From the NCBI GenBank assembly GCA_019454045.1, contig SKCR01001860.1, positions 1 through 64,000 on the forward strand: 64,000 nt of DNA, written 5' to 3'. A program made the position numbers and the translations under genes. The notes under the pieces are model-generated. The model was not told the DNA's origin. It saw only the letters and a program-made list of their open reading frames with translations, and made no database searches. Below are positions 13,894-63,739 of the stretch, one piece after another. The first letter of the stretch is position 1, and each line of letters begins with the position of its first letter. The stretch is from Zanthoxylum bungeanum (lineage: Eukaryota > Streptophyta > Magnoliopsida > Sapindales > Rutaceae).

Positions 13894-15957
13894 TGTTGGT
13901 TTATTCTAAGGTCCCAAGATCAAATCAAGACATGAAATTATGTGTGAACACATCAACGGAGGTAGCGGAATACTCACATTGATCGGTAGAGTCGATTTGA
14001 AGACAAATGAACCCAAAAAACGCACTGCCATGTAAGCCTACTGCATGCAGTCCACTGCCTACAAAAACAGAAAATTAAGTGAAGAAACGGGGCTCCTAGC
14101 TTCGTCGGATGGATCCCGTCTCATGGTCGAACCTCCCTACCACCTTCGCAAGACTTGTAAGTGTGCTAGCACTTGATTTATCACCATGAGAAACCACTCT
14201 TGCTTCCCTTTAGCTCACGCCCAAACTAGTTCCAAACCAGTGAACACTTTGCTCAAATGGGCGTGAGAGAGGAGAGAGAAAATTTGAGAGAGAAGAAATG
14301 TGTTATGTTAATTAAAATGATTTACCAAAAATCAATTTATATTTATGCCATAATTTATTAAATTAATAATAAAATTATGACACATAACATGCAATGGCTT
14401 AGAGTATAAAACACTCAATTTCCATGCAATAATATTGAGTGCATTGTACACAATCTACATGCAATGACATTGAGTACAATGTACACAATCTACATGCAAA
14501 GCATTAGAATGACATGTGTCATGTGGGCCCCACACGTTCCCAAATGAAAGTGGGCCCACGTGCACTCACGCGTTCGGGTTCGATATTTCCGAAATACCGA
14601 GCTTACGTCGCGACGTTAATTCAATCGAATTTAAATAAATAATCGCCCCCGGCGAAATTATTATTTACGTCGCTAACGAATTAATTCTTAATTAACTCGT
14701 TTGCCCGAATTAAAATCTAATTTTAATTCCGCGTCGAAATCTAATTTCGTCTAATATATCGAATATATTAATACATCGATTAATTCCGAATTAATCGTTC
14801 TCTCTCTTTAGACGACATTTTATCCCGGATAAAATATCTCCGTTATTAATCCTAGATTAATTTTCTCTCTCTTCTATATAATCCCAGATTATTCAAGAGT
14901 GCGAGTTGTGCGTCATCGGTGGATTATCGGGAAGCGACCCATGAGATCCCCGGATAAGTTGGCAGTAAATACGGTCGTCGGAGTGCCCGAATCATGTACG
15001 TACCAAGTACTACGTTCTACCGATTTACGAGATAAGGTCGACTCCTAGCAAAGCACCAAGTCTTCCCAAGTTCTCCGGACATATTCATTAAAGAATATCT
15101 AGATCTGTATCAAGCGTAGTATACAATTGTATTGTGTATATTGGCCCAGTATCGGATAATCACGTGCTAGGGCTGGGGCTGGATAAGTGTCTGCCCCGTC
15201 CGAAACACATATCGGATGTCTGGTAACTAGTCTCTATAATCGGATATTCATGACCTGGCCATAATATCACGATTGGATGCGCATCACTTTAAGAGCACTA
15301 ATACCGTATCCTGCGTGACATCATCTCCATTACGACTGGAGTGACACTTCCGTCTTGACATCACATCCAATACACTACGATTCTCTGATAAACCCAGAAG
15401 AGGTGAATACAGAACCAGTTAAGATCCCCCACCACCAAAACCAAAGTTTACCGATTGTCGTAAGTATTAGCGATGCAAGTCTCAGGTTAAGACTATACAC
15501 ACCTACCTTGATTTCGGCCTCCCATAGACACCTAGTCATAATACCAATGGGATTCCGAAGGGTCTATCCAGAGCGAAGCTGTTTCCCGTACCATCGTGTG
15601 TGAAACACGACCTCCTATCGCACTTGCACAAGTATCCAATACTTATATATATGAGAACTATGCCGTTGTGCCCTCACAACGCGCACAAGTGCAATACTAG
15701 CCTATTCCGCATTATCGATGTCCAGTCTCGATAATACTACGGCTAGGGATATTTAATGATTAATCCTTCGTGGACTGATACTGTCTCATATCATCTCAAT
15801 CCAGGAACTAATCATAGGGACCTCTCTTCATTTATATATCTATGGTGATCTAATCACAAACGATGAGAGAGTGCAATTTCCTTATTACATAGTTAATTTG
15901 CTACAACAACACAATGATCTGTGCAAATAGTGACGCTATGGGTCATATTATCCAAAA
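13894..15957 (-). mobile_element. Element F 3' LTR (left copy)
   Basis: It matches 22070-24131 with a few indels (for example GAAGAAACGG here against GAAGAAGAAAACGG). Its last bases are CCAAAA rather than CCAACA. The 82-residue ORF at 15355-15603 is duplicated in the other LTR and has no domain. Confidence 0.92.
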
Positions 15958-22069: not shown

Positions 22070-24131
22070 TGTTGGTTTATTCTAAGGTCCCAAGATCAAA
22101 TCAAGACATGAAATTATGTGTGAACACATCAACGGAGGTAGCGGAATACTCACATTGATCGGTAGAGTCGATTTGAAGACAAATGAACCCAAAAAACGCA
22201 CTGCCATGTAAGCCTACTGCATGCAGTCCACTGCCTACAAAAACAGAAAATTAAGTGAAGAAGAAAACGGGGCTCCTAGCTTCGTCGGATGGATCCCGTC
22301 TCATGGTCGAACCTCCCTACCACCTTCGCAAGACTTGTAAGTGTGCTAGCACTTGATTTATCACCATGAGAAACCACTCTTGCTTCCCTTTAGCTCACGC
22401 CCAAACTAGTTCCAAACCAGTGAACACTTTGCTCAAATGGGCGTGAGAGAGGAGAGAAAATTTGAGAGAGAGAAGAAATTGTGTTATGTTAATTAAAATG
22501 ATTTACCAAAAATCAATTATATTTATGCCATAATTTATTAAATTAATAATAAAATTATGACACATAACATGCAATGGCTTAGAGTAAAAACACTCAATTT
22601 CCATGCAATAATATTGAGTGCATTGTACACAATCTACATGCAATGACATTGAGTACAATGTACACAATCTACATGCAAAGCATTAGAATGACATGTGTCA
22701 TGTGGGCCCCACACGTTCCCAAATGAAAGTGGGCCCACGTGCACTCACGCGTTCGGGTTCGATATTTCCGAAATACCGAGCTTACGTCGCGACGTTAATT
22801 CAATCGAATTAAATAAATAATCGCCCCCGGCGAAATTATTATTTACGTCGCTAACGAATTAATTCTTAATTAACTCGTTTGCCCGAATTAAAATCTAATT
22901 TTAATTCCGCGTCGAAATCTAATTTCGTCTAATATATCGAATATATTAATACATCGATTAATTCCGAATTAATCGTTCTCTCTCTTTAGACGACATTTTA
23001 TCCCGGATAAAAATCTCCGTTATTAATCCTAGATTAATTTTCTCTCTCTTCTATATAATCCCAGATTATTCAAGAGTGCGAGTTGTGCGTCATCGGTGGA
23101 TTATCGGGAAGCGACCCATGAGATCCCCGGATAAGTTGGCAGTAAATACGGTCGTCGGAGTGCCCGAATCATGTACGTACCAAGTACTACGTTCTACCGA
23201 TTTACGAGATAAGGTCGACTCTTAGCAAAGCACCAAGTCTTCCCAAGTTCTCCGGACATATTCATTAAAGAATATCTAGATCTGTATCAAGCGTAGTATA
23301 CAATTGTATTGTGTATATTGGCCCAGTATCGGATAATCACGTGCTAGGGCTGGGGCTGGATAAGTGTCTGCCCCGTCCGAAACACATATCGGATGTCTGG
23401 TAACTAGTCTCTATAATCGGATATTCATGACCTGGCCATAATATCACGATTGGATGCGCATCACTTTAAGAGCACTAATACCGTATCCTGCGTGACATCA
23501 TCTCCATTACGACTGGAGTGACACTTCCGTCTTGACATCACATCCAATACACTACGATTCTCTGATAAACCCAGAAGAGGTGAATACAGAACCAGTTAAG
23601 ATCCCCCACCACCAAAACCAAAGTTTACCGATTGTCGTAAGTATTAGCGATGCAAGTCTCAGGTTAAGACTATACACACCTACCTTGATTTCGGCCTCCC
23701 ATAGACACCTAGTCATAATACCAATGGGATTCCGAAGGGTCTATCCAGAGCGAAGCTGTTTCCCGTACCATCGGTGAAACACGACCTCCTATCGCACTTG
23801 CACAAGTATCCAATACTTATATATATGAGAAGAACTATGCCGTTGTGCCCTCACAACGCGCACAGTGCAATACTAGCCTATTCCGCATTATCGATGTCCA
23901 GTCTCGATAATACTACGGCTAGGGATATTTAATGATTAATCCTTCGTGGACTGATACTGTCTCATATCATCTCAATCCAGGAACTAATCATAGGGACCTC
24001 TCTTCATTTATATATCTATGGTGATCTAATCACAAACGATGAGAGTGCAATTTCCTTATTACATAGTTAATTTGCTACAACAACACAATGATCTGTGCAA
24101 ATAGTGACGCTATGGGTCATATTATCCAACA
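22070..24131 (-). mobile_element. Element F 5' LTR (right copy)
   Basis: It is the near-identical partner of 13894-15957, with TGTTGG and CCAACA ends. The TSD AGAGG follows at 24132-24136. Confidence 0.92.
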
Positions 24132-24979: not shown

Positions 24980-25575
24980 TCACAAACCACTAATGGTGGT
25001 CTGTCCCTTGAAGTCGGGTAATGTTCCTTTAACACCTGAGCCTGTGTCTGGCTCGAACTTCATCTTTTCCATGATCTTAGCCACCTTAGGATCTACCAAT
25101 TCCTCAAAGGTTATCGACACTTGGAACCTCGTGAAAGGTTGTATTTCCAAAGCGGCTACATAATTGTCTCCTTCAGCTCTAATGATGACAATCTCTCCCC
25201 CATACGGAAACTTGATGACTTGGTGCAGAGTGGAGGGCACGCCCCCAAGCTTGTGAAACCATGGCCTTCCCAACAACAAAGTAAAAATGGCCGGGATATC
25301 CAGTACTGTGAACTCAACCTTGTCTTCTACTAGGCCCACTTTGACCACTCCGGCAAAGGTACCCTCAACTCCTCGCTTGCTATCATCATAAGCCTTAATA
25401 GTCATATTTGAGGGACTCGGATCTGTCATCTTCATACCCAGCCTTGACAAGATCTTCAAAGGAAACACATTGATAAATGAGCCGTCATCCACCATTACAT
25501 AAGATGTCTTGTTACCCCTCACTTCAGCTCTTATGAATAAAGGCCTTTTATGATTCTTGTGTTTCAGGTTCTCAG
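24980..25575 (-). pseudogene. Element G aspartic protease
   Basis: The minus-strand frame reads KHKNHKRPLFIRAEVRGNK, then the active-site-like VDDGSFINVFPL, and later LLGRPWFHKLGGVPSTLHQ, a typical retropepsin plus flap pattern of gypsy polyproteins. The usual (D/G)GS triad appears as DDGS. The frame runs upstream to the junction with H near 25575, where homology stops; the preceding gag is missing. Confidence 0.85.
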
Positions 25576-25582
25576 AAACTAC

Positions 25583-27271
25583 ATGAGACGAACCAGAAGC
25601 TTTGAACTCCGACCGTTTGACCTAGAAATTGAAATAACCATTAGACAGTTGAGAAGGGAAAGGCGAGAAGGCCAAGAAGCTTTAGTCAACATGGAACTTG
25701 AACCTTTGGAAGTTGCACCACCGATACCCATTCGAGACAGAACCATTCTGGTGGTCGACGACTTCATTTCCTGTATTGTAGTTCCTCATTTACCAGTAAA
25801 TGCGTGTGACATCAAAACATGCATCCAGATGATTCAGCAGTCAGTACAGTTTGGGGGAAATGCAACTGATGATCCTAATTCCCACATCAGTAACTTCCTA
25901 GAAGTTTGTGATACTTTCAATTACAACTGAGCAGCTGAAGAAGCAATGAGACTGCGTGTTTTTCCATACTCCTTGAAGGACAGAGCTAAAGCTTGGCTAC
26001 ATTCACTACTAGTAGGTTCCATCACAACTTGGAATACTCTAGCCACCAAATTCCTTGCAAAGTACTTTCCACCAGCCAGAACTGCAAAGTTGAGGAATGA
26101 CATCACATCCTTTGTGCCACAAGATTCAGAATCCCTTTGCGAAGCTTGGGAAAGATTCAAAGATTTACTCCGCAAATGTCCTCATCATGAGATCGCAAAG
26201 TGGCTACAAGTCCAAACCTTCTACAATGGACTTTCAGGAATAATGAGAACCATAGTTGATGCTGCTGCTGGAGGAGCTTTGATGGCAAAAGGAGAAGATC
26301 AGGCCTGGGACTTAATTGAAGTAATGGCCAACAACAATTCTTTATGGCCAACAAAAAGGAGCATGATCCAAATAATTACAGGAATTCATGAAGTTGGAGC
26401 CAACACAGCACTAAATTCCAAACTGGATGTGATTTGCAAAAATCTGGAAACTCTTAACATGAAAGTTAATGGTGGATCCACAAGTTCACCATTTGGAGGA
26501 GTACCTGAGTCAGAATCTTACAACCAACAAGAAGAGACAGTGAACTATGTCAACAATTTCAACAGACAATGGAACAATCCATATTCCAACACCTACAACC
26601 CGGGGTAGAGGAATCATCCGAATTTTTCATGGAGCAACAATTCAGGGCAAAAGAACAATCCACCACTAGGATTCCAACAGCAGAACTATCCACCACCTGG
26701 ATTCCAACAACAAAATAAAGGCCAGGAGCATGAAAAAGAACCAGGAATAATAGAAGTGCTGGCCCAGTTGAAGAAGCAAGAAGCAAAATACGATTCTTTA
26801 ACAGCTATGGTTTAAAATCAAGTAGCATTGAATCAAAGCCATTCAGCCTATATCAAAGCACTGGAGAATCAAATGGGACAACTGGCCAATGCTCAGAGTT
26901 ACAGACCCCCAGGTAATCTTCCCATCAACACATAACCAAATCCAAATAACCGAGGGAATGAGCAATGTCAAGCCATCACCTTGAAAAGCGGTACTGAAAT
27001 CAACAAACATGTTGGAGCCAAAACAACTGTTGAGGAAGTTCCAAAAGAAACAAAGCAACAGATAGAGGAAAAAGAAGAAAAGGAAAAAGAACAGATCACT
27101 CCACCTCCACATTTTCCTCAGCATCTTCAGAAGAATAAAGTGGACAAGCAATTTGCTCGATTCTTGGAGTTGTTCAAAAAGCTGCATATCAACATTCCAT
27201 TTGCAGAAGCGTTGGAACAAATGCCCAGCTATGTCAAATTCATGAAAGACATTCTTTCAAGAAAATGAAGA
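25583..27271 (+). pseudogene. Element H Gag (nonsense-broken, frame intact)
   Basis: From ATG 25583 (MRRTRS) one frame continues for the whole region. It shows the retrotransposon gag core: MIQQSVQFGGNATDDPNSH, FLEVCDTFNYN, then MRLRVFPYSLKDRAKAWL, TTWNTLATKFLAKYFPPART and later EQMPSYVKFMKDIL. In-frame stops are near 25928, 26606, 26812, 26932 and 27268. There are no frameshifts. Several stops sit where relatives of this family usually have Gln, Arg or Trp codons, as expected from C to T (or G to A) change. Gag would form the virus-like particle. Confidence 0.88.
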
Positions 27272-27787
27272 TTGAGAGACTATGAAACACTAGCATTGAA
27301 GGAAGAATGCAGTGCCATCATTCAGAGGAAACTTCCCTCGAAGTTGAAAGATCCTGGCAGTTTCACCATTCCATGCATCATAGGAGAACATAACTTTGGT
27401 AAGGCTTTATGTGATTTAGGTTCAAGTGTTAACTTGATGCCTTTTTCTATTTTCAGGAAACTGCAGATTGGAGAAACAATGCCCACTTCAGTCTCTCTGC
27501 AACTTGCTGATAGAACGCTCGTATTTCAAAGAGGCGTAGTTGAGGATGTGCTGGTCAAGGTTGACAAATTCATTTTCCCAGCAGATTTTATTGTCCTTGA
27601 TATGGAGGAAGACGAAGACGTGCCGATCATTCTCAGGAGACCATTCTTGGCTACAAGTCGAACCATTATTGATGGATAAAAAGGAGAATTAACCATGAGG
27701 GTACATGACCAAGAAGTAAGATTCAATATTTTCAAGGCCATGAATTTCCCAGATGATTAAAAGAAGGAAGAATGTTTCAGACTTGAT
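27272..27787 (+). pseudogene. Element H aspartic protease region
   Basis: In the same frame as gag. It contains ALKEECSAIIQRKLPSKLKD, the active-site block CDLGSSVNLMP (Asp codon at 27413) and the C-terminal DVPIILRRPFLATSRTIID, a standard Athila protease arrangement in which the triad is DLG. In-frame TAA stops are at about 27679 and 27757. The sequence then runs directly into the remnant integrase tail without RT. Confidence 0.87.
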
Positions 27788-28279
27788 GTGATACACAGTA
27801 CCATTCAGAACTCCAATGCAATGCAAAGTTCTATTGACAAACTTAAAATATGTCAATTGCCTATGGAGCCTGAAGATAAAGTATCTTTTGCACTGAAAAA
27901 GCCAATTCTTGCACTACAAGCAACAGAAGAGAAAAATTTCCACCAACTCAAAGAATTGGAGGAATTTCACAATCAGCCTTTTGTGGATGCTAAATTGTAC
28001 AAAGAAAAGGCCAAGAAGAGACATGATGAGAAGTTAGTGCGCATATATCTGGAACCAGGGCAGAAGATACTGTTAAACAAATCAAGGGTGAAATTCTTCC
28101 CAAAATCACGGTGGTCAGGTCCATTTGTGATCACCAAGGTTTTACCAGATAGAGCCGTTGAGATATACGATCCCGACTCCAACAAAACAATCAAGGTTAA
28201 AAACAAGCGTGTCAAACACTACTGGGGAGAATCATTTGAGCGACAAAAAGAAAGTGTCACACTTTCAGATCTAGCCTAA
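27788..28279 (+). pseudogene. Element H integrase C-terminal domain fused in frame after protease
   Basis: Residues from KEKAKKRHDEKL through the KILLNKSRVKFFPKSRWSG block to KVKNKRVKHYWG match the C-terminal, SH3-like part of Athila/Tat integrases. All of RT, RNase H and the integrase catalytic core (normally about 1000 residues) are missing between this and the protease. The frame is the same as gag and protease, so a Gag-PR-INc polyprotein would be read through apart from point stops. The first about 55 residues are of uncertain origin. Confidence 0.8.
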
Positions 28280-28401
28280 CATTCGAGAAGTCACGTCTAG
28301 CTAACGACTTTAAACTTAGCGCTAGCAGGGAGGCAACCCATGCAATTTGTGTATAAATTGTGATTTGGTGTGATTTAATTTTGTGTGTTTAGTTTTTGCA
28401 G
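28280..28401 (+). other. Post-pol spacer with conserved GGGAGGCAACCCA motif and acceptor-like site
   Basis: AGCGCTAGCAGGGAGGCAAC (about 28317-28336) followed by CCA is a motif I associate with the region just after pol in Athila/Tat elements. A pyrimidine-rich run ending GTTTTTGCAG (AG at 28400-28401) directly precedes the next ORF and looks like a 3' splice site. Confidence 0.6.
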
Positions 28402-28947
28402 ATTAAGACATTTTATGATGGAAGAAGTTCTCACAAATCTTCACAAGCAATTTCCTTCTCTCCCTCAAAACTCTCTGATGAAAGTCTACAAAGCTCACTT
28501 GGAACGGATGAGATTACTAACGATCATGGTGTTCCTAATGATATTCGTTGGGTAATTGAAGCACGAGTCCGATTGGAAGGTGAGTCTTCTGACTCTTTTA
28601 TTTCACATCTGTCTGGTTTTGAAAGAAGCACCTATGCAAAGAAACGTAGAGCTAAGCAAATAGGTGTTTGTTATAAATGTGCACGCTGGAATTGCAATAC
28701 TCGTTGTCATTCTTTAAGAATGGTGTCTGATAATCGTAAATTAGATTCTTTAAGAATTGAGTCTGTAGATGATATATCTTCAACTCTTGAGACGCATCCT
28801 AGTGGATATGTTCATATAGCCATTCGCAAATTGCATACACAATTCCAAAAAGAAAGACAACAGTTAAGTCTTGGGAATCTGACTCAAAAAGACCCTGTTT
28901 TCCAATTTATAAGAAAATTGGATGGGAAGCTTGTCCCTGACGCATAG
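28402..28947 (+). CDS. Unrecognised Cys-rich ORF of element H (no ATG at its start)
   Basis: About 182 codons are open, ending at TAG 28945. I do not recognise the family. There is no in-frame ATG until far inside; the open frame begins around the acceptor-like TTTTTGCAG, so it may be a downstream exon of a spliced element transcript. The middle carries a basic run (YAKKRRAKQ) followed by a Cys cluster, CYKCARWNCNTRCH (C-x2-C-x4-C-x3-C-H), perhaps metal-binding but not a canonical zinc knuckle. The position between pol and the LOG ORF is that of an env-like or extra ORF. That it stays open while gag and pol have stops is notable. It could be a captured host fragment. Confidence 0.55.
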   Translation: MKTFYDGRSSHKSSQAISFSPSKLSDESLQSSLGTDEITNDHGVPNDIRWVIEARVRLEGESSDSFISHLSGFERSTYAKKRRAKQIGVCYKCARWNCNTRCHSLRMVSDNRKLDSLRIESVDDISSTLETHPSGYVHIAIRKLHTQFQKERQQLSLGNLTQKDPVFQFIRKLDGKLVPDA

Positions 28948-29198
28948 ACGTCAATCAAGCCGCTACATTTCTTTTACATATTATATCTCTTTGTCTTTTC
29001 CTGATAATTGTGATTTGTTTTGTTGTTTTCTTTTATTTTCTCCGACAGGATCCAGACCTTTTTTACTATCAAGATTTATTTTACTGTTTAATTAATAATT
29101 GTCATTTGGCAGGTACTAGTGCTATTATTTTACTCACCCTTTTCAGGTATTATAAATTCAACTCATCATTGCACTTTTGAAGACATCCAGAGTAAAAC
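28948..29198 (+). other. Spacer between the two extra ORFs of H
   Basis: AT-rich, no ORF. Three pyrimidine-AG sequences resembling splice acceptors occur (TTTTCTCCGACAG ending 29049, CATTTGGCAG ending about 29113, ACCCTTTTCAG ending about 29147), the last about 50 bases before the LOG ATG. Confidence 0.5.
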
Positions 29199-29851
29199 AT
29201 GGAAGCCACTTCAAGAAGACGAGTTGAAAACATCTGTGTGTTTTGCAGTATTAGTGTTGGTGTTAAGCCACAATACGTAGAGGCAGCACAGGAATTGGGT
29301 CGAGTCTTAGCTGCAAGGAATATGCACTTAGTATATGGCGGAGGCAATCTTGGACTTATGGGGATCGTTTCAAAAGCTGTACATGAGGGAGGCAATAACG
29401 TTTTGGGAATCATCCCAAAACCCTTGGCTGAGGAAAATCTTATTGAACCATCAAACATAGAGGAACTGATCGTGCCAGGTATGTTTGAACGATTGGTAGA
29501 AATGATTAACCGTGCTGATGCTTTTATTACTTTGCCAGGTGGCTTGGGTACATTGGAGGAAATTTTTACAGTGTTATCTTGGGCGAACATGAACATACAC
29601 CAGAAATCGCTTGGACTGTACAACGTGAAGGATTTTATGATTTTCTTTGTGTGTTTCTTGATGATGCCCGGAGAAATGGGTTCGTGTCAAAACTTTTAAA
29701 AGAACTCCTCTTCACTGCCAGAACTGCTCAGGATCTAATTGACCAAATCTTAGCCTATGAACCACAAATTGACCCTATCCTTTCAAAGATAAATTGGTCT
29801 GAGGACGATCGTGGTAAGAGGCGTCGGATTAATCTGGATCTTAACCTTTAA
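29199..29851 (+). pseudogene. LOG: Captured LONELY GUY-type cytokinin riboside 5'-monophosphate phosphoribohydrolase (one frameshift)
   Basis: LOG enzymes release active cytokinin bases from their nucleoside monophosphates. From ATG 29199 the protein shows ICVFC (residues 12-16), LVYGGGNLGLMG (44-55), HEGGNNVLGIIPK (62-74), MFERLVEM (95-102, with the conserved Arg at 98) and PGGLGTLEE (113-121), the PGGxGTxxE signature with its Glu. Homology continues in the next frame from GAA at 29627 (EGFYDFL ... LLKELLFTA ... IDQILAYEP) to TAA 29849-29851, so a single-base loss at 29625-29627 breaks the gene. Total length over both frames is about 217 residues, normal for the family. It has no introns, unlike plant LOG genes, pointing to capture of a processed transcript. 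The usual CGSS near the N-terminus is CSIS. The C-terminus (GKRRRINLDLNL) is not typical of LOG. Confidence 0.88.
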
Positions 29852-29912
29852 CTTTTCGTGTAGCATTTCAGTTAACCAGGTACTATCTTCTAAACTCTTC
29901 TTCTATTTTTAA

Positions 29913-29930
29913 GACATTGGGGACAATGTC
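29913..29930 (+). other. Stem-loop before an internal PPT-like site in H
   Basis: GACATTG - GGGA - CAATGTC forms a perfect 7-bp stem with a 4-base loop, followed at once by TTTAGGTTTGGGGGAGG. The similar AACATTGAGGACAATGTT hairpin is, from memory, a common landmark of Athila/Tat 3' regions. Confidence 0.7.
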
Positions 29931-30390
29931 TCATTTAGGTTTGGGGGAGGGAATTAGTTGATCAGTATCTTGTTTTTAGTTATGTGTTTTTTTTTTATTT
30001 TTAGTCCAAAAATTTTCGAAAAATACAAAAAAAAAACTTGAAAATTTTTCAAAAATTACAAAAATATTTTGCGTTTTTGTGTTTTTATTTTGACTAAAAA
30101 GGTGAAATTGGTAAGAGATAGCTGAGTAAGGAGTTTCCACTCCTGAGACGTGTCTCAAACCTATTTCAGAACAAGTTAATTTTAGTTTATTTCCTTTTGA
30201 ATTATTTAATTTGTGAATTCTCCATAATACTGACTAAAATGGATCTTCATATGCTCAGTTGGCAGGTATTATCAACATGCATGGTAACATACGGACATGA
30301 GCTAAAATTGAAAAGTTTGTAATATTCAGTGCTCTAGTTTAATTGGAGGAAGCATCTCAAAAAGTGATGGAGTAAAAAAAAATAAAAACG

Positions 30391-30630
30391 TCTGAGATCC
30401 GAGTTATTAAGTCCGTATCGGTGTTTTAACACTTAGTGCCCTAAAACCAACTAGTTTGGGAGTCACTGGCCCAAAGCTCGCTACATGGATCAAGGATGTT
30501 GCAAAAATATATATATATGAAGTCTGAGTAATTAAGTCCGTATGGGTGTCTTAACACATGATGCCCTAAAGCAAACTGGTTTGGGAGCCACCGACCCAAC
30601 ACTCGCTACATAGATGGAAGATATTGTATA
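30391..30630 (+). repeat. Tandem duplication in the H 3' region (period 132 bp)
   Basis: Two diverged copies begin TCTGAG at 30391 and 30523. Both contain ATTAAGTCCGTATxGGTGT, TTAACAC, GCCCTAAA, GTTTGGGAG and CTCGCTACAT blocks in the same order. Confidence 0.85.
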
Positions 30631-31164
30631 TATAAAAAAAAAATCAAAAATCAAAGAAAAAAATCAGAAAAATTATTCCACTGTTGCAAAAGGTGTGAAT
30701 TTTGATAAAATTTTAGGACAAAAATATTACTCTCTTATCAACTGCACTTGTGACTGTTGTGGGCAAAAATGAGTTGATTAATATTTTTTTGGCTATGCAT
30801 ATGGAGAATGGTAAATATAATTGGAGAATTTACTTATTCAGTAATTTAGAAAGAAAGAAACAACTAGTAACTTGGAGTAGAAGTTTCACCTGATTAGTCA
30901 CTAACTTCTTTATTCTCTTTTCTCTTGTCTTTTTGCTTTTGTGTGCATTAGTTTTATTAGCTTTTTACTTTTGTAAAACGTTTGTGGGTATCGTTGCTGT
31001 AAGCCCTCACGAGACTATAACTTGTCCACTAGGGACACATAGGGGTTTAAAGGCTTGTTGCATATGCTAAATGCAACCGTGATCCCTACGAAAGTGGCTT
31101 AGTTTAATTTTAATTATTTCTTGTATTTTATTTTGTTGTTTTGCTCGACGACTAGCAAAATGTT

Positions 31165-31177
31165 AGGTTTGGGGGTG
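31165..31177 (+). other. Element H polypurine tract
   Basis: AGGTTTGGGGGTG directly precedes the LTR start TGATGAGCGG, the usual Athila/Tat arrangement. Confidence 0.8.
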
Positions 31178-33278
31178 TGATGAGCGGAAAATATATCAAT
31201 ATTTACAGCCCCTTTTACTTAATATTTTGTTTAGTTTCTCGGGTTTGATGAACATTTTGATGTGTTTTAGTTTATTTTGTAGATAAAATAATATTGGGAC
31301 ACAATGAAATCATTTAGGACGAAATATGGGTCAAATAAGGGCAAAAATTGGACTTGACATATTAATTTTGGAGATTGGAAACTTGAAAGGGCGTTTTAAC
31401 GAAGTACAGTTTTGGAAATTCCAATTTTGCGCATATGTCGTATTTTGGGAATAACATTTTACTCCGATATCGAATTGAGCTGATTCAAGTTCCAAATTAA
31501 AGAAGACTCAACGATCTACAACTTTAAAACACAAAAAAATTTCGAATTCTGAAGATTTCATACCTGCAATTGATGAACCATCCAAAAGTGTGTTGTGTGT
31601 AATTATTAAAGTCATTTTCAATCATTTTCAAGAAAAAAAATAATTAATAAATAAATAATAAAAATTATCAAATCACCACCAAACATGATAAGCAATTAGT
31701 GGATCAATTAATAATGGATTTGGTGGATGATTTGATGGAGGCAAAATTTTGCCTATAAATACCAAGTCATTTCATTTGTAAAATTCATACTTTCTTCTAA
31801 GGAATTCCTTAATAATACTAAGAAGATTGTATCTTGTTTGTTTATTTACAGCTTACAGTAATTAATTTCCGCTTTCGCACTTTCTTTTCTTTACTTTTTA
31901 GTTTTTACTTTCCGCAATTTACTTTTACGCACATTACTTTTCTTTCTTAATTTTCAGTTTTTTACTTTTCAGTAATGAGGAGGTAACTCCCCTTTACTGG
32001 GGTAAAAGGTAAAACTTTTATTACTAATATTTAGATTAATCTCCTTTAATTATAATATATAAACTAGTTAAAACCTGACTTAACGAGGATACCGCCAAAT
32101 TGGTCGGTTGGTAATTATTTAAATTGGTTTTAACCTAACTAAACTGGATACCGCCTGATTGGTCGGTTGGTAATTAATTATTAATTTGACTTAATCTGGA
32201 TACCGCCTATATGGCTGGTTGGTAATTATCATGCAAAGTTAATATATTATATTAAGGGAGATATCTAAAATAGAAGTAATAAAAGTGGATCATTTTACCT
32301 CAGCATTTTCTTTTATTCTACTTTTACTTTATTTACTTTTCAGCAATTACTTTCAACATTTACTTTTCAGCAATTTACTTTCAGCATTTACTTTTCAGTA
32401 ATTTACTTTCAGCATTTACTTTCAGCATTTAATTTTCAGTATTTAATTTCAGCATTTACTTTCCGTCATTTACTTTTCAGCAATTTACTTTCAGCATTTT
32501 AATTTATGTCTTTTATTTTATTTAAGTTTTTACTACCGTAAATATGTGTCGTAACTAAGCCAGTTATCTGGGGTTGTGATAAATCCAATATCACCGGTTT
32601 ATAATGGATTATTTTATAGTTTTGGTAATTTAAAGGTTTACTTATTAAGTCTTAAGCTTAATGTGTCTTGTTAATTGGCCATTAATAAGATTGATCTGGT
32701 AAATCTAAAATAAACTTGACAAAGGAATTTTAGGTTTCAGCCTTAAACTTAATAGCCCACGATCTTCCTTGAGGATAAATAACCCTTTAATAGATTTCTT
32801 TACAATATAGACATATACATGTCGGGCGGGGGTAGCCATAATTGGAACTTAAACTTAATGAATCCAGATAATTTGGTTGACATAGACATATGGTTCAATT
32901 GGGTTATACTGGGTATTTGCGTCTGACCATCGACAGAGGCATTCACATAATTTAGTGTTCCAGGTTAGTAAACCGATTTATTACACAACATGAAATAACC
33001 ACTTCATCTTTTAAAAGATATTAGAAAGATTCACAACCCTAGATAGTTTCCTAATATCGAATTTTCTTAAATCTATTTTCGTGTAATTTTATTTACTTGT
33101 TTTTAAATTCAAAATCTTCACCATTTCAAATCAATCAATCAACCTGCTAGATACTAGTAATAATTTGACCTCATAAAATTAATAGATTATGTATTAAGTC
33201 CTCGTGGGATTGATACTTTTTATATTACTTGAACGATACGTGCGCTTGCATTATACGCGTGTGATTACGCACCAGTCA
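31178..33278 (+). mobile_element. Element H 3' LTR
   Basis: Begins TGATGAGCGGAAA after the PPT and ends GATTACGCACCAGTCA; about 2.1 kb. Internal repeats: three GGATACCGCC blocks with GGTTGGTAATTA (starts 32087, 32146 and 32198), and about ten short ACTTTTCAGCAATTT / ACTTTCAGCATTT units between 32325 and 32500. No second copy of this LTR exists in the window, so LTR age cannot be estimated. The following TAAAT could be the TSD but has no visible partner. Confidence 0.8.
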
Positions 33279-39912: not shown

Positions 39913-41875
39913 TGTTAGACAGTAATGACCCATAGCGTCACTATTTTGTAAATGATATTGTATTATTGTACAAAATTAACTATGTAGTAATGAAATTGCC
40001 TTTTACCGTTTTGTAATTTATTTACTTTGATATATAAATGGTAAAAGTCCCTATGATTAGTTCCGGATTGTGATGATATGAGACAGTATCAATCCATAAA
40101 GGTTTAATCATTAATATCCCTAGTCGTAGTATTATCGAGATTGGACATCGATAATGCGGAATAGACTAGTACTGCACTTGTGCATGTTGTGAGGGCACAA
40201 CGGCATAGTTCTCATATATTTAAGTATTGGATACTTATGCAAGTGCGGTAGGAGGTTGTGTTTTACCGATGGTACGGAAAACAGCTTCGCTCTGGATAGA
40301 CCCCGCGGAGTCCCATTGGTAGTAGTGTCTGCGCGTCTATGGGAGTCCGCTTCAGGGTAGGTGCATATGATCTTAACCTGAGATTTGCATCGCTAGTACT
40401 TACGACAATCGGTAAAATTTAGGTTTGGTGGTCCAGGGCTTTAACGAGTTCTGTGTATACCTCTTCTGGGTTTATCGAGAATCGTAGTGTACTGGGTGTG
40501 ATGTCAAGATGGAAGTATCACTTCAGACATATGGAGATGATGATCGCGAGGGATTCAGAACTAGTACTCTATAATGGTTGCAACCATCGGGATAATATGA
40601 CTAGGTCAGGATTATCCGATTCAAAGAGACTGGTTGCTAGATGTCCGATATGTGTATCGTACGGGGCAGACACATATCCACCAGCCCCAGGCCTTACATG
40701 TGATCATCCGATACTGGTTCGATACACACTATACTACGGTATACTACGCCTGTTATAGATCTAATATTCCAATAAGAATATTTCTAGAGAATTGGGTAGG
40801 CATGGCGTTTTGCTAGAAGCTAACCTTGTCTTGTAAATCGGTAAAAACGTAGTACTTGGTACGTACGTGTTCGAATAGTTCGACAACCGGATTTACTGCC
40901 AACATATCTAGAGGTCTCTTGGGTCGCTTCCCGAAGATTCACCGATGACGTATGATTCAAACTCGATTAATCTTGGATTAATTACGGAGAGACTTTATCT
41001 TGGATAAAGTATTATATAAAGAGAGAGAACGATTAATTTAGAATTAATCGTAAATTATTATATTCGATATAATAATCGGAATTCGATTTCGACGTGAAAT
41101 TGAAATTAGATTTTAATTCGGGCAAACGAGTTAATTTAGAATTAATTCGTTAGCGACGTAAATAATAATTTCGCTAGGCGCAATTATTTATTTAAATTCG
41201 ATTTAATTAACGTCGCGACGTAAGCTCGGTATTTCGGAAATATCGAACCCGAACGCGTGAGTGCACGTGGGCCCACTTTCATTTGGAAACGTGTGGGGCC
41301 CACATGACACTTGTCATTATTTGCATTATTTAATCAAGATGTATTGCATGAAGATAGTGTACAAAGCACTCAAGGGTATTGCATGGAAATTGAGTGTTAG
41401 ACACTCTAAGTCTTTGCATGGTTTGTGTCATATTTATATTATTATTTAATATAATTATGACATAAATATAAATTGATTTTTGAGACAAAAATCATAATCT
41501 TCTCTCCCTCTCAAGCTTACCGAAACAGTAAGCTCTCACAGCCCTCTCCATTTCTTCATTTTTGTTGCAAAAAGGCTTGAAGAAAGTGTGTGTGTTTGGA
41601 ACATTAAATCACATATTTGGCTAGCACCATCAAGGGATCATACAAGGTGTTATGGGAAACTCATCTTAGAGCTTGGAAGGATCAAACATTGCTTGGAGCT
41701 TCTCTTTTCATCTTGGCCGAAACCCTCACTGCACAAAGGAGGAAGTTTTTGTTTCATCAACGCATCCGGATTCCGTTTTTGTGAGTATTGTTTCCGCCAT
41801 TACTTCAATCTAGTTCATTCTTATATATATTTTGCTTGTTTTTGATCTTGGGACATGGTTATTAGATTTCCAACA
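39913..41875 (+). mobile_element. Element C 5' LTR
   Basis: Starts TGTTAGACAG, ends TTTCCAACA, followed by the PBS. A splice-donor-like GTGAGTATT lies at 41781. ORFs at 40453, 41261 and 41588 recur in the 3' LTR and have no domain; I treat them as chance. Confidence 0.95.
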
Positions 41876-41876
41876 A

Positions 41877-44079: not shown

Positions 44080-44920
44080 ATGGGAAGCAAGGTAAATGTC
44101 CGAGACATCATCATGGGTGACAATGTCTTTAAGTGGATAAACTTTGCTGATTGGGAAATGAACCTAAGGATAGTCCTTGGGGCAGAGAGGATACTGTATA
44201 CGATTCAGAGACCTCTCGGGCCTAAGCCCACTGAGCCACTTGAGCTGGAGTTATGGAAAACTCACAGTGATGATTGTGACACGGCTCAGTCGATCATGCT
44301 TGCTTCTCAATGACTCAACACTTTCGTCGCCAAAATAAGGACTTGGATCCTTATAATATGATGGCAAGATTGCAAGATCTTCACCGCACTAATAAGCGGA
44401 TGGCGAGGTACGAGTTAGTGAAGAAAATCTTTCGCTCCCGTATGACTGATGGTAGTTCTGTTGAGGTCCATGGGACTCAAATGATAGCCGATATTGATGA
44501 ACTGGCTTGTATGGGTATAGTCTTGGAGTCTGAGCTGGCTATAGATGTACTTCTACAGTCACTACCCGATACTTGGAAACAGATTGTCATCAACTACAAA
44601 CTGATGAATTCGGATGACACTCTTGGAGAGTTGTTGTCAATTCTCAAGGAGTCAGAGAAAGAACTTCTGAAAGGCAACAAGCGCGAGGCGCACTTTGCAA
44701 CAACATTTAAAGCTGGGCTCAAGGCAACTGGGGGTGTTAAGAAGAAGAAGCATAAGAACAAAGGCAAGGCCAAGTCAACAAAGGCTTCTGGGAAGCCAAG
44801 GGACAAGTCTCAAGATGTTTGCCTGAAATGCGGCAAAAGAGGTCACTGGAAGCGTGACTGCCGCATGAACAAGGGACATAAGGAGGACATACAGGCGGGC
44901 AAGGCTCCGGCCTCAGGTAT
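44080..44920 (+). pseudogene. Element C Gag with intact zinc knuckle (one frameshift)
   Basis: ATG 44080 (MGSKVNVRD) opens the gag; the frame shifts near 44300 into the frame of MTQHFRRQNK. The UBN2-like gag core (LLQSLPDTW, ELLSILKESEKELLKG) is followed by a lysine-rich segment and the CCHC knuckle CLKCGKRGHWKRDC at 44820-44861, all four ligands present. Gag coats the element RNA; the knuckle binds nucleic acid. Confidence 0.9.
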
Positions 44921-45590
44921 GTTTGTTATTGAGATAAATATGACTACTTCCGTCTTAATAAAAATTGGATTATTGATTCTGGCTGTGGTTCTCATATTTG
45001 TACTGATGTGCAGGATCTGCATGATAGCAGGAGACTGGCTTCGGGGGAGGTAGATCTACGAGTTGGAAATGGAACTTCTGTTGCTGTTTTGGCCGTAGGC
45101 ACTTTTGTTTTGGAACTACCCTCGGGGCATGTATTAAACTAAATGACTGTTATTTTGTTCCTAGTTTAACTAGGAATATTATTTCTGTATCTTTGTTAAC
45201 CCAAACAGGGTACACTTTTGTATTTAAAAACACCAGGTGTTATTTATATATGAATGATGCAGAAATTTGTAGTGCAGATGCAAATAATGGTCTTTATATT
45301 TTGAATATAAATGAATCTCCAAAATGTAAAATAACAAACAAAAGGCTCAAAATGAGTAATCCAAAAGAAGAAACTTATTTGTGGCATTGTCGTCTGGGAC
45401 ACATCAACAAGACTCGCATATCCACACTTTCGAAGAGTGGGTACTTGGACGGATTTGATCCAAATTCATATGACGTCTGCGAATCTTGTTTATTAGGCAA
45501 AATGCCTAAATCACCTTTTAGTGTAAAGGTGAACGCGCCACTGAACTGTTAGCCCTCGTTCATAGTGACGTTTGTGGGCCCATGTCTAGC
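44921..45590 (+). pseudogene. Element C protease and GAG-pre-integrase region
   Basis: The protease active site IDSGCGSHICTDV is encoded from 44972 in a different frame from gag; further shifts occur near 45140 and 45525. GAG-pre-integrase shows LWHCRLGHINKTRI (about 45380) and CESCLLGKMPK (about 45478), the zinc-binding HHCC of copia integrase. Confidence 0.87.
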
Positions 45591-46594
45591 CAGGCTAGAG
45601 GTGGATATCGATACTTCGTAACCTTTACGGATGATGCATCACGTTATGGTTATGTGTATCTAATGATGCACAAGTCGGAAACTTTTGAGAAATTCAAAGA
45701 GTTTCGACACGAAGTTGAAAAACAAACAGGCAAGAGTATTAAAACATTACGGTCGGACCGTGGTGGCGAATACTTAAGTAATGAGTTTCAAGATTACTTG
45801 AAAGAATATGGTATTCTTTCACAATGGACTCCTCCTGGAACACCACAATTAAATGGTGTGTCTGAACGGAGAAACCGTACCTTGCTTGATATGGTAAGGT
45901 CGATGATGAGTCGCACTGAGCTGCCTATATCCTTCTGGGGACATGCATTAGAAAGTGCAATTCTTATTTTGAATAGGGTTCCGTCAAAGTCTGTAGAACA
46001 GACTCCGTATGAGATATGGACAGGAAAGAAACCAGGTTTCTCATTCCTGAAGATTTGGGGTTGCTGGGCATACGTCAAACGTTTGGAAGGTACCAAACTT
46101 GAACCCAAATCAGATAAATGCCTATTTGTTGGATATCCTAAGGAAACCAAAGGATATTACTTCTATAACCCAAAAGAGAACAAAGTATTTGTTGCTCTAC
46201 ATGCGGTTTTCCTTGAGAAGGAATTCCTAAATGCAGTGTTTAGTGGGAGGAAAGTAGAACTCGATGAAAGTCGGAGTGATACTGTTCCTGGCAATGAATC
46301 AAGAACGGAACATGAACAGTCCATCCAGGATGAGACTGAACCACAATCTTCAATTACACAAGGACTGCGTAGGTCGGAGAGAGTCAGGGTAATACCTGAG
46401 AGGTATGGATTCCTGATCTCACCTCATGTAGATATTAATCTTATTGAGGATACTGAACCGGCTACGTATGAGGAAGCGATACAGGGTATCGAATCCACTT
46501 TATGGCAAGAAGCCATGAAGGCCGAAATGGATTCCATGTATACCAACCAAGTTTGGACACTGGTTGATGCACCAGAAGGCGTAAAGCCTATTGG
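45591..46594 (+). pseudogene. Element C integrase core and C-terminal region (open)
   Basis: A continuous frame holds the catalytic triad: Asp in FTDDAS (codon near 45630), Asp in LRSDRGGEY (45756) and Glu in VSERRNRT (45864). There are 35 residues between the second Asp and Glu, the DD35E spacing. Downstream the GKKPGFSFLKIWGCWAYVKR and FYNPKENKVFVALHAVF motifs are typical of copia IN. The frame is intact from 45582 until a shift near 46615. Confidence 0.92.
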
Positions 46595-47500
46595 ATGCAA
46601 ATGGGTCTTCAGAAGAAGACAGACATGGATGGCAACGTACAAACGTACAAAGCTAGGCTCGTAGCGAAGGGGTATCGTCAACAACTTGGAGTTGATTATG
46701 ACGAAACTTTCTCACCCGTTGCCATGATTAAATCCATTCGGATAATGCTTGCAATAGCTGCATATTACGATTACGAAATATGGCAGATGGACGTTAAAAC
46801 CGCTTTCCTTAACGGAAACCTGTTGGAGGATGTTTATATGCAACAACCTGACGGTTTTATCGCACCAAGACTTGCAAACAAGGTTTGTAAGTTAAATCGG
46901 TCCATTTATGGACTGAAGCAAGCATCGAGGTCATGGAACCAACGTTTTGATGAGGTCATAAAAGAATATGATTTCATTCAAAACGTAGATGATCCTTGTG
47001 TATATAAGAAGGTTAGTGGGAGTGCACTGACTTTTATTGTCCTTTATGTCGACGATGTATTGCTTATAGGCAATGACATTCCCATGTTAACGTCGGTGAA
47101 AGCTTGGCTTTCATTGAAATTCTCCATGAAAGATCTGGGAGAAGCAGCTTTTATTCTAGGAATAAAGATCTACCGGGATAGATCTAGAAAGCTACTTGGA
47201 CTCTCCCAGAGTACATATATTGATAAAGTGTTGAAGAGATTCAACATGGATCAGTCCAAGAAGGGACTGTTGCCAACATCACATGGCGTCTTTCTATCTA
47301 GGGACATGTGTCCTAAAACACAAGATGAGAGAGACAACATGAGTCGGACTCCGTTCGCCTCGGCAGTCGGATCGATCATGTATGCCATGATATGTACACG
47401 ACCTGATGTGTCCTATGCTTTGATCATGTGCAGTCGATATCAGGCCGATCCAGGACAGGATCACTGGATGGCGGTTAAGAATATCCTTAGGTATCTTAAA
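46595..47500 (+). pseudogene. Element C reverse transcriptase
   Basis: RVT_2-type copia RT: YKARLVAKGYRQ, DYDETFSPVAMIKSIR, QMDVKTAFLNGNLLEDVYM, SIYGLKQASRSWN and the catalytic YVDD at 47045-47056. The frame stays open from 46595 to 47746 and includes the start of RNase H. It is separated from IN only by the shift near 46615 (extra or missing base in CTTCAGAAGAAGACAG). Confidence 0.93.
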
Positions 47501-48030
47501 AGAACTAAGGATGTTTTCTTAATCTATGGAGATGGAGAACTTGAGGTATCTGGGTATACCGATGCAAGTTTCCAAACCGACAGAGACGACTTCAAGTCGC
47601 AAACCGGGTACATATTTTGCTTGAATAACGGAGCAGTGAGCTGGAAATCTTCCAAGCAAGATACTGTTGCCGATTCAACAACTGAAGCGGAGTACATACA
47701 GCAGCTGAAGCAGCAAAAGAGGCAGTTTGGATCCGAAAATTCCTAATTGGATTAGGAGTAGTTCCGTTAGCAGCTGAGCCCGTTCCATTGTATTGTGACA
47801 ATAGCGGGGCTATAGCACAGGCTAAGGAACCAAGGTCTCATCAACGATCCAAACATGTTCTTCGACGATTCCATCTGATTCGAGAGATCATACATCGTGG
47901 CGATGTGAAGATCGAGAAGATCGCATCAGAGGATAATATTGCAGATCCGCTGACGAAGGCTATTCCTCGGGAAAAGTTTGAGCGACATGTACATAGTTCA
48001 GGTATTAGATGCTTGAGTGACTGGCTATAG
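47501..48030 (+). pseudogene. Element C RNase H
   Basis: YGDGELEVSGYTDASF (first Asp), STTEAEYI (Glu), then a frame shift near 47692, and YCDNSGAIA (Asp) to the C-terminal SGIRCLSDWL and stop at 48028-48030. It removes RNA from RNA-DNA hybrids during reverse transcription. Confidence 0.9.
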
Positions 48031-50006: not shown

Positions 50007-50011
50007 AAAGG

Positions 50012-50490
50012 TTGAATCGTAATCAGCACAATGTTGATAACGATACCTTTCCGCTAAAAGCCTAGCTTAGTACGTTGGTATGTTGCCTTCCATGTATGTC
50101 TTCCTTGAAGACTTATATAGTACCAGTAGGCACAATGCCTTATGGTACATCAACTAGTATCTAAACTTGTTGATATACATGGAATCCATTTCGGATTCAT
50201 GACACTTTGTCATAATAAGGGAGTCGATGCCTTGTATCACTTCCTCATACGTAGTCAGTTGGTATACCTCAATAAGATAGACATCTTTATGAGGTGAGAT
50301 CAGAAACCCATACCCCAGGTTGTTTTCTGAATCTCTCCGACTTACGCGGTTCTTGTGTATTCGAAGATTAATGGTATAGTTTCATCCTTGATGAACTATT
50401 TGTGTTTCATTAAGGAATATATGCCTTGAATAGTATTACTCCGATTTTCATCGAGTTTTACTATCCTCCCACTTACCACTGCATATCGGT
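50012..50490 (-). pseudogene. Element B RT remnant beyond C
   Basis: Collinear with 17046-17520 of element F (ATGTTGATAACG, TTGCCTTCCATGTATGTCTTCC, CCACTGCATATCGGTATTCC blocks), that is, copia RT/IN-RT linker on the minus strand. It ends abruptly at the deletion junction with the 5' LTR near 50491. Confidence 0.8.
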
Positions 50491-52491: not shown

Positions 52492-52496
52492 CTTGG

Positions 52497-53572: not shown

Positions 53573-53586
53573 ACCAAATGGGAGAT
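53573..53586 (+). other. Element A polypurine tract, copy 1
   Basis: ACCAAATGGGAGAT before the LTR; one base differs from ACCAAGTGGGAGAT in copy 2. Confidence 0.83.
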
Positions 53587-60240: not shown

Positions 60241-60245
60241 CTTGG

Positions 60246-61339: not shown

Positions 61340-61353
61340 ACCAAGTGGGAGAT
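61340..61353 (+). other. Element A polypurine tract, copy 2
   Basis: ACCAAGTGGGAGAT immediately before the LTR. Confidence 0.85.
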
Positions 61354-63276: not shown

Positions 63277-63739
63277 AATACCATATACATCTACCCTGAT
63301 TCGGATTCCCATAGACACATAGTCATACTACCAATGGGACTCCGAGGGGTCTATCCAGAGCGAAGCTGTTCCCGATCCAACGGCTAACAGAACCTCTTAT
63401 CACACTTGCATAAGTATCCAATACTTAAATATATGAGAACTATGTTGTTAAGCTTCCATAACGCGCACAAGTGCAATACTTGTCTATTCCGCATTATCGA
63501 TGTTCAGTCTCGATAATACTACGACTAGGGATATTTAATGATTAAACCGTTCGTGGATTAATACTGTCTCATATCTTATTTATCTGATACTAATCATATG
63601 GACTATTATCATTCATATATATCCAAGTAATCCAATTACAAAATGATTAAAGAGTAATTTCTTTTGTCACATAGTTAATTTGTACAAAAATACCATGTCT
63701 TTTACAAATAGTGATGCTATGGGTCATAATTGTCCAACA
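63277..63739 (-). mobile_element. Element E LTR fragment, copy 2
   Basis: Matches 55512-55972 and ends AATTGTCCAACA. The preceding A LTR marks the same insertion site as in copy 1. Confidence 0.85.

What the first reader, a model, noticed from the sequence alone, without database searches (positions are those of the whole stretch)
29199..29851. LONELY GUY cytokinin-activating gene captured by an LTR retrotransposon
An intronless LOG-family ORF in sense orientation sits between the integrase tail and the 3' PPT/LTR of element H. The conserved Arg (residue 98) and the PGGLGTLEE block survive. LOG genes of plants have several introns, so this is likely a reverse-transcribed mRNA copy. A hormone-activating enzyme spread by a retroelement could alter cytokinin dosage or feed small RNAs against host LOG genes. 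I do not know of a described family of this type but cannot search.
Basis: partly seen in the sequence, partly recalled or inferred. Interest (0 to 1): 0.92.

Follow-up and report, generated by a model that had tools for sequence, protein, structure and literature searches.

The report
Retrotransposon with cytokinin and virus-like genes
A very abundant plant jumping gene carries, next to its own genes, an old copy of a plant enzyme that switches on the growth hormone cytokinin and a second gene resembling a plant-virus protein, and both look as if natural selection has kept them working, so this may be a case of mobile DNA using a host hormone gene for its own ends.

Summary
Window 29199-29851 is a LOG-type gene (PF03641) in sense between the integrase tail and the polypurine tract/3' LTR of a Ty3/gypsy element; this copy is 5'-truncated, lacks most of pol, and its LOG is frameshifted. 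It is no local accident: a 30-base LOG probe matches 28,666 places in the 3.96-Gb genome (reversed control 0), and LTR pairs flank LOG in 7 of 10 copies examined. Host LOG genes are separate, intron-containing and 42-68% identical in ungapped exon pieces, so the capture is old. Element-type LOGs form their own clade with relatives in Populus, Xanthoceras, Paulownia, Reevesia and Diplodiscus. Inner-branch dN/dS is 0.21 (LOG) and 0.35 (CRP) against 0.7-1.5 and 1.1-1.2 in the wrong sense frames. LOG domains in Citrus and Populus elements are noted in one sentence in print; I found no description of the pairing, tail, selection or scale.

The parts
25554..33278 (+). 5'-truncated, pol-deleted copy of the LOG-carrying Ty3/gypsy element
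   Evidence: blastn of two other element copies against the window: homology 25554-31291 (in pieces for the RT-bearing copy) plus LTR up to 33270; LTR end read from the sequence printed there
25946..26608 (+). gag fragment
   Evidence: PF03732, 80.7 bits
27890..28279 (+). integrase C-terminal tail; about 2.7 kb of pol before it is missing in this copy
   Evidence: ORF 27788-28279 without Pfam hit; aligns with the 3' end of pol of the RT-bearing copy C21229
28418..28947 (+). CRP: cysteine-rich, basic, virus-NABP-like ORF; damaged in this copy
   Evidence: PF01623 Carla_C4 E=2.2e-6, 28.0 bits, cut-off 20.9; 88% identity to an intact copy; one stop and three frameshifting indels
29199..29851 (+). 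LOG gene (217 codons in intact copies) with C-terminal basic cluster and LxLxL tail; one-base deletion in this copy
   Evidence: PF03641 97.1 bits; 93.7% to an intact copy over 654 bases; tail
29852..31165 (+). spacer between LOG and the PPT, taken as non-coding
   Evidence: 29880-31170 used as the LOG-independent probe, 40 scored matches of 8,233 candidates
31166..31177 (+). polypurine tract next to the LTR
   Evidence: a similar purine run precedes the 3' LTR in the seven copies printed
31178..33278 (+). 3' LTR (TG...CA, about 2.1 kb)
   Evidence: 83-95% to the LTR of copy C24657 in three pieces; end read

Best explanation
This is a decayed copy of an old, hugely amplified Ty3/gypsy LTR retrotransposon lineage whose 3' region (the place of env-like genes) holds a two-gene accessory module: CRP, a basic, cysteine-finger protein of the kind found in carlaviruses and related RNA viruses, then LOG, a cytokinin riboside 5'-monophosphate phosphoribohydrolase of plant type. 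SHOWN: element structure, probe copy number, co-travel of the two ORFs, separate old LOG group, retained catalytic residues, purifying selection on inner branches for both ORFs, and a new basic-plus-LxLxL C-terminus on LOG. INFERRED: when the element is transcribed, LOG turns cytokinin nucleotides into active cytokinin in the same cell, favouring dividing, meristem-like cells from which new insertions can reach the germ line. CRP enters the nucleus and weakens silencing or alters transcription, as its viral relatives do. The LOG tail takes the protein to the nucleus and binds TOPLESS-type corepressors. Elements that lost pol but kept LOG would be mobilised by pol proteins of relatives.
For: LTR pairs of 1.9-2.2 kb around LOG in 7 of 10 regions, 5-bp TSDs exact in 4 of these 7, PBS and PPT; gag, RT and integrase Pfam hits in one copy. 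LOG probe 28,666 places, CRP probe 23,664, control 0 for both. Of 72 exact CRP places listed in contigs C1-C155, 35 have an exact LOG place 682-750 bp downstream on the same strand; no other arrangement within 1 kb. CRP and LOG distances correlate, r=0.53, 0 of 2000 permutations as high. dN/dS on inner branches: 54 LOG copies 0.21, 38 CRP copies 0.35; the same statistic in frames +1/+2: 0.70/1.54 and 1.21/1.13. Sample picked by spacer only: LOG 0.32 inner, 0.38 tips; CRP 0.36 and 0.56. Arg98 in 52 of 54, Glu121 in 54 of 54. AF2 model pLDDT 85; best PDB match AtLOG3 2a33, TM 0.94 by target length. Tail LxLxL 80 of 102 element-type, 0 of 120 canonical. 53 of 60 CRPs match PF05515 and 52 of 60 PF01623. 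Viral CRPs as silencing suppressors and, for one, a transcription factor: PMC12172455 (passages).
Against: Most copies are broken: in the spacer-picked sample 3 of 18 LOGs and 1 of 13 CRPs lack stops and frameshifts; in the LOG-score-picked sample 19 of 36 and 6 of 27. Terminal-branch CRP values (0.56) are close to some wrong-frame controls (0.73-0.87; 0.65 in the spacer sample), and one antisense frame of LOG also reads low (0.28), expected from shared third positions but still a control that does not separate. Gly48 of the YGGG loop is Arg in 7 of 54 copies. The tail shows no third-position excess among the copies of this genome, so its selection rests on conservation between distant relatives. 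No expression, enzyme or binding data exist here. LTR context was seen only in this genome; for other plants it rests on two shared contig lengths and PMC9289625. CRP-virus similarity is local (about 85 residues) and its AF2 model is poor.
Confidence: 0.7

Rival explanations
1. The element LOG is no longer mainly an enzyme. The LOG fold is a scaffold that carries a nuclear signal and an EAR motif, and its job is to recruit TOPLESS corepressors to host or element promoters.
For: Basic cluster in 95 of 102 and LxLxL in 80 of 102 element-type proteins, 0 of 120 for both in canonical LOGs; the tail is of low confidence in the model, as a short linear motif would be. Microbial effectors with EAR motifs that bind TOPLESS are known (PMC7446885, PMC8126959: search listing only).
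Against: Catalytic residues are kept (Arg98 52 of 54, Glu121 54 of 54), which a scaffold would not need. Early-branching rows (P0033, P0036, P0037, P0081, P0112, P0117) lack LxLxL. No third-position excess in the tail within this genome.
Confidence: 0.25
2. LOG and CRP are passengers that spread because they sit inside a successful element, with no benefit from the proteins.
For: Most copies are broken; passenger genes inside elements exist (recalled).
Against: Inner-branch dN/dS well below the wrong sense frames in both ORFs; about 50% protein identity kept between relatives in different plant genera; LOG is kept in elements that lost pol.
Confidence: 0.1
3. Recent reverse-transcribed copy of this plant's own LOG mRNA.
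For: No introns in the element LOG; the three host LOGs fetched have them.
Against: 42-68% identity in ungapped exon pieces, separate group 99/96, PGG-Y-GT in 119 of 119 canonical motifs against L 64, F 29, I 2, Y 1 in the element type.
Confidence: 0.03
4. The CRP is not homologous to viral NABPs: a basic stretch and a cysteine finger arose independently in a retroelement accessory protein.
For: Short match, low-confidence CRP model; a strongly conserved C-terminal block (SLGNLT..KDPVCQFIRKLDGK) lies outside the Pfam match.
Against: Two viral Pfam models pass E<=0.001 in 52 and 53 of 60 members, best E 5.8e-8 and 1.1e-8.
Confidence: 0.3

Closest known systems
YgdH/LOG domain in LTR retrotransposons of Citrus and Populus (Steinbauerova 2011; Alvarado-Marchena 2022, PMC9289625)
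   Same: LOG-type domain in Ty3/gypsy elements; my Populus hits (P0044, P0051, P0087, named LOGL10) fall in the same clade as the element LOG here
   Different: Mentioned in one sentence in the section I read, not characterised there. Here: the CRP partner, EAR-like tail, selection, tree, and 28,666 probe matches. Steinbauerova 2011 could not be read.
Orchid Ty3/gypsy elements with an AlkB m6A demethylase (PMC9289625; abstract, passages and section 12 seen)
   Same: Host-type enzyme gene fixed in a gypsy lineage, thought to help the element against the host
   Different: RNA demethylase, not a hormone enzyme; activity shown in vitro there, not here
Carlavirus and flexivirus cysteine-rich proteins (PF01623, PF05515)
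   Same: Basic stretch followed by a cysteine finger, Pfam cut-offs passed
   Different: Encoded by an LTR retrotransposon, about 182 aa, with a conserved C-terminal block outside the viral match
Canonical plant LOG (AtLOG3, AtLOG8, host LOGs L029-L031)
   Same: Fold, PGGxGTxxE block, catalytic Arg/Glu
   Different: No introns, PGGLGT instead of PGGYGT, added basic and LxLxL tail, mobile
Athila-type elements with env-like ORFs
   Same: Extra sense ORFs between pol and the 3' LTR; PBS and gag style (recalled)
   Different: No env-like or Athila Pfam hit in the ORFs scanned; RT lineage not placed in a tree here

Membership tests
Ty3/gypsy LTR retrotransposon | Paired LTRs, TSD, PBS, PPT | tested here: met
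   7 of 10 twenty-kb regions gave a clear LTR pair around LOG; TSD exact in 4 of 7 (C24657, C27586, C21229, C18558), one mismatch in C32781, not seen in C29888; in C4408 the LTR match stops short of the CA end and the TSD could not be read
Ty3/gypsy LTR retrotransposon | gag, RT before integrase | tested here: met
   C21229: PF03732, RVT_1, H2C2 and rve in that order, in interrupted frames; in the six other copies no RT or integrase-core frame of 100 aa or more was recognised by eye
Athila lineage | Position in an RT tree; Athila ORF-1 PF03078 in part of the lineage | not tested
   No reference RT set at hand; PF03078 not hit in the ORFs scanned, but only 16% of Athila elements have it (PMC6317226, passages)
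LOG (PF03641 type) | PGGxGTxxE block, catalytic Arg and Glu, fold | tested here: met
   (54 copies)
LOG (PF03641 type) | Releases cytokinin base from riboside monophosphate | not testable with these tools
   No assay
Canonical plant LOG gene | Intron-containing host gene, PGGYGT, plain C-terminus, groups with host LOGs | tested here: not met
Flexivirus CRP/NABP (PF01623, PF05515) | Passes the curated cut-off | tested here: met
   Window ORF 28.0 bits against 20.9 for PF01623; copy L015 26.8 against 23 for PF05515 and 22.7 against 20.9 for PF01623; 52 and 53 of 60 homologues at E<=0.001
Flexivirus CRP/NABP (PF01623, PF05515) | Same fold as a viral CRP | tested here: inconclusive
   AF2 pLDDT 65, pTM 0.29; no fold search run
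Flexivirus CRP/NABP (PF01623, PF05515) | Silencing suppression or transcription-factor activity | not testable with these tools
   Known for viral CRPs (PMC12172455, passages)
EAR-motif protein | LxLxL or DLNx(x)P sequence | tested here: met
   80 of 102 element-type against 0 of 120 canonical; 29 of 36 copies of this genome; definition from PMC9956375 (abstract start in search listing)
EAR-motif protein | Binds TOPLESS and represses | not testable with these tools
   No assay

The most novel reading that the evidence does not exclude
The element carries a two-protein host-control kit comparable in logic to viral accessory genes or retroviral oncogenes: a viral-type silencing suppressor (CRP) plus a nuclear, TOPLESS-recruiting cytokinin-activating enzyme (LOG-EAR) that holds cells in a dividing, meristem-like state so that new insertions reach the germ line. 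It has been kept by selection in several plant lineages and has seeded tens of thousands of copies in this genome.
Probability: 0.3. Interest if true: 0.95.

Novelty: new variant of a known kind. Interest (0 to 1): 0.8.

Why it matters
If the LOG is active, a transposable element makes a plant growth hormone in the cells where it is expressed, a route of element-host manipulation of which I know no study (recalled, plus the searches named in the full report). The CRP would be a candidate element-encoded silencing suppressor of viral type, bearing on how gypsy elements escape RNA-directed silencing and on gene traffic between RNA viruses and retroelements. Practically, some element-type LOGs are annotated as host genes (Populus proteins named LOGL10), so LOG gene-family counts and expression work in plants with such elements may mix the two. 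With 28,666 element LOG probe matches against 31 canonical-exon matches, small RNAs against host LOGs are also conceivable, though at 42-68% protein identity cross-targeting may be weak.

Tried and rejected
Bacterial origin of the LOG (suggested by PGGLGT): best PDB match is AtLOG3 (204 bits) above Pseudomonas (159 bits), and the fold match agrees; not supported, although no broad bacterial sample was put in the trees. Viral source of the LOG: 24 IMG/VR loci encode LOG-like proteins at 25-43% identity; their contigs were not examined. Viral relative of the CRP in IMG/VR: none with P0140; the single hit with the alignment, L072, lies in a 573-aa ORF beside phage-like ORFs that I take for an SbcC-type coiled coil (recognised by eye, no family search) and count as chance. 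CRP structure: poor model, no fold search. Candidate splice acceptors before CRP (TTTTTGCAG) and LOG (CCTTTTCAG about 60 bases upstream): the whole neighbourhood is conserved, so this is no test; my loose pattern found one in 9 of 9 CRP and 32 of 53 LOG copies. Host species: not named; the host LOG's best matches are 90-91% identical in several eudicots. Tail selection within this genome: no third-position excess, against my reading. The CRP line (2 of 25 undamaged) counted the normal stop after codon 182 as damage; one search recounts.

Full report
What is there. The finding's coordinates hold a LOG-type gene (PF03641) in sense orientation, between the integrase tail and the PPT/3' LTR of a Ty3/gypsy element. 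The window copy is damaged: homology starts at 25554, no 5' LTR was found in the window, most of pol is missing, and both its CRP and its LOG are frameshifted.

It is an element gene, not a local rearrangement. The window's genome (3.956 Gb, 51,709 contigs) gave 47,331 first-look candidates for PF03641; 150 were scored and all 150 passed the cut-off. A 30-base LOG probe with up to 3 mismatches matches 28,666 places, reversed control 0. An exact pattern for the canonical plant PGGYGT exon matches 31 places. I read ten LOG copies in 20-kb context: seven had a clear LTR pair of 1.9-2.2 kb around LOG, with PBS and PPT and 5-bp target-site duplications exact in four. LTR divergence (K2P) is 0.019-0.046 in these seven. 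Three layouts occur: gag + integrase tail + CRP + LOG with pol deleted (C32781, C27586, C29888, C18558 and the window); gag + RT + integrase + damaged CRP + LOG (C21229, Pfam hits); and a different first ORF + LOG without CRP (C24657, C4408). Three of the ten regions were not resolved.

A LOG-independent check. I searched with the spacer 29880-31170 (40 scored of 8,233 candidates) and read 1.5 kb upstream of the 20 best after the window itself; best by spacer score is not a random draw. LOG was matched in 19 of 20 (18 over half its length, one fragment) and CRP in 13 of 20. Only 3 of 18 LOGs and 1 of 13 CRPs have neither stop nor frameshift, so most copies are dead. Among copies picked by LOG score 19 of 36 LOGs and 6 of 27 CRPs are undamaged; both counts include the window copy.

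The neighbour: a virus-like ORF. The ORF just upstream of LOG (182-192 aa when intact) matches PF01623 (Carla_C4) and PF05515 (Viral_NABP), the nucleic-acid-binding proteins of carlaviruses and relatives: 28 bits for PF01623 in the window, and 52 and 53 of 60 chosen homologues at E<=0.001. It has a basic KKRRAKR-like stretch followed by CxxCxxxxCxxxC, and a strongly conserved C-terminal block. Its probe matches 23,664 places, control 0. Among the exact places listed for contigs C1-C155, 35 of 72 CRP places have a LOG place 682-750 bp downstream on the same strand; no other arrangement occurs within 1 kb. CRP and LOG distances among 38 copies correlate (r=0.53, 0 of 2000 permutations as high). 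The two genes travel as a unit in many, not all, elements.

Distribution. The protein search with the LOG gave 7,852 matches among 7,999 scored candidates (120 listed), with named ones in Populus, Xanthoceras, Paulownia, Reevesia and Diplodiscus; with the CRP 383 (120 listed), with named ones in Populus, Xanthoceras, Acer, Rhamnella and Orobanche. LTRs around these were not seen. Two contig lengths, 4,511 and 8,723 bases, appear in both lists (P0105/P0142, P0098/P0143; 17 LOG and 22 CRP clusters with contigs of 3-20 kb); by resampling, two or more coincidences have P about 0.001. PMC9289625 (section 12 read) reports the YgdH/LOG domain in LTR-element consensuses of Citrus and, with a looser filter, Populus.

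Age and origin of the LOG. Three host LOGs, fetched of the 31 pattern matches, have introns and canonical exons; the element LOG is 42-68% identical to L029 and L030 in ungapped pieces (pieces of L031 and one of L030 were aligned across introns and are not comparable). In two trees the element type is separated from canonical LOGs: 105 rows against 4 (98/97) and 63 against 22 (99/96). Both samples are best-hit lists, so intermediate LOGs may be missing. Canonical LOGs have PGG-Y-GT in 119 of 119 motifs; the element type has L 64, F 29, I 2, Y 1. The nearest solved structure is AtLOG3. So the capture is old, probably from a plant LOG, and not from this plant's present genes.

A new tail. Element-type LOGs end in a basic cluster followed by alternating leucines, such as GKRRRINLDLNL here and KKRKLDLTLRL elsewhere. 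LxLxL is in the last 22 residues of 80 of 102 element-type proteins and 0 of 120 canonical ones; a basic cluster in 95 of 102 and 0 of 120. The 120 are the best hits of one host LOG, so they stand for that subfamily; the tails of L029 and L031 lack the motif too. In this genome 29 of 36 copies keep LxLxL. LxLxL is the EAR motif consensus (PMC9956375, abstract start in search listing). Early-branching rows (P0033, P0036, P0037, P0081, P0112, P0117) have the basic cluster only, which suggests a stepwise gain. The AF2 model (pLDDT 85) gives residues 204-217 a pLDDT under 50. Against this, codons of the tail show no third-position excess among copies of this genome.

Selection. Parsimony counts on trees of 54 LOG and 38 CRP copies give (N per N site)/(S per S site) of 0.21 on inner and 0.36 on terminal branches for LOG, 0.35 and 0.56 for CRP. 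The two wrong sense frames give 0.70 and 1.54 inner, 0.76 and 1.09 terminal (LOG), and 1.21 and 1.13 inner, 0.87 and 0.73 terminal (CRP). In the LOG-independent sample LOG gives 0.32 and 0.38 (wrong frames 0.70-1.40 inner, 0.77-1.22 terminal) and CRP 0.36 and 0.56 (1.19-1.20 inner, 0.65-0.88 terminal). Of the antisense frames one reads low (LOG 0.28, CRP 0.46 inner), as expected where third positions coincide. An early log line of a codon model gave omega 0.27 for the first 36 LOG copies, without transition bias. Those 36 were picked by LOG score or lay beside such copies, apart from the window, a bias that the spacer sample avoids. The terminal CRP values are hardly below their controls; the inner ones are. 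The reading is that source elements needed both proteins and that dead copies drift.

How it probably works. Shown: structure, number, linkage, selection, retained active-site residues (Arg98 52 of 54, Glu121 54 of 54; Gly48 changed in 8 of 54), new tail. Inferred: LOG makes active cytokinin where the element is expressed; CRP acts as viral CRPs do, which are silencing suppressors and, for one carlavirus, a transcription factor that causes hyperplasia (PMC12172455, passages; primary paper not held); the tail gives nuclear entry and TOPLESS binding. A joint purpose, keeping cells dividing and silencing weak, is my suggestion and untested.

Novelty. Extra ORFs in plant gypsy elements are known (PMC7264820, PMC11963269 and PMC6317226, passages seen), and the LOG domain in such elements has been noted (PMC9289625). 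The listings showed me no paper on the CRP in retrotransposons, on an EAR-like tail of a LOG, or on selection or copy number of such LOGs; of those listings I opened only PMC9289625, PMC6317226, PMC11963269 and PMC7264820. The held library is open-access only, and Steinbauerova 2011 could not be read. I therefore file it as a new variant of a known kind.

Noticed in passing
window 13894-15955 and 22070-24129: A direct-repeat pair 98.9% identical over 2.07 kb, probably LTRs of a young element beside the LOG element.
   Followed up: no
window 39913-41876 and 48045-50007, with ORFs 44310-47746: 98.9% identical 1.97-kb repeats flanking copia-type gag, integrase and RVT_2 ORFs: probably a young Ty1/copia element.
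   Followed up: partly
window 50488-56115 and 58221-63882: A 5.7-kb direct duplication at 95% identity, not explained.
   Followed up: no
window 32310-32527: Short tandem array (about 14-bp steps) inside the 3' LTR of the LOG element.
   Followed up: no
L011/L012 (C24657) and L027/L028 (C4408): Non-autonomous LOG elements in which gag-pol is replaced by an ORF of unknown family (no Pfam hit for the two C4408 pieces tested) while LOG is kept.
   Followed up: partly
P0044, P0051, P0087 (Populus): Some proteins named LOGL10 in NCBI are of the element type, so plant LOG gene lists may include transposon genes; the same name is also given to canonical LOGs.
   Followed up: partly
L005 (C22167) and L015 (C27586): Two loci with identical CRP and LOG: either a duplicated assembly stretch or a very recent duplication.
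   Followed up: no
CRP copies, codons 11, 52 and 148: The same stop positions recur in several CRP copies (5, 4 and 3 copies at codons 52, 11 and 148): shared descent of broken copies or mutable codons.
   Followed up: no
L073-L096 (IMG/VR): 24 viral contigs encode LOG-like proteins at 25-43% identity.
   Followed up: no
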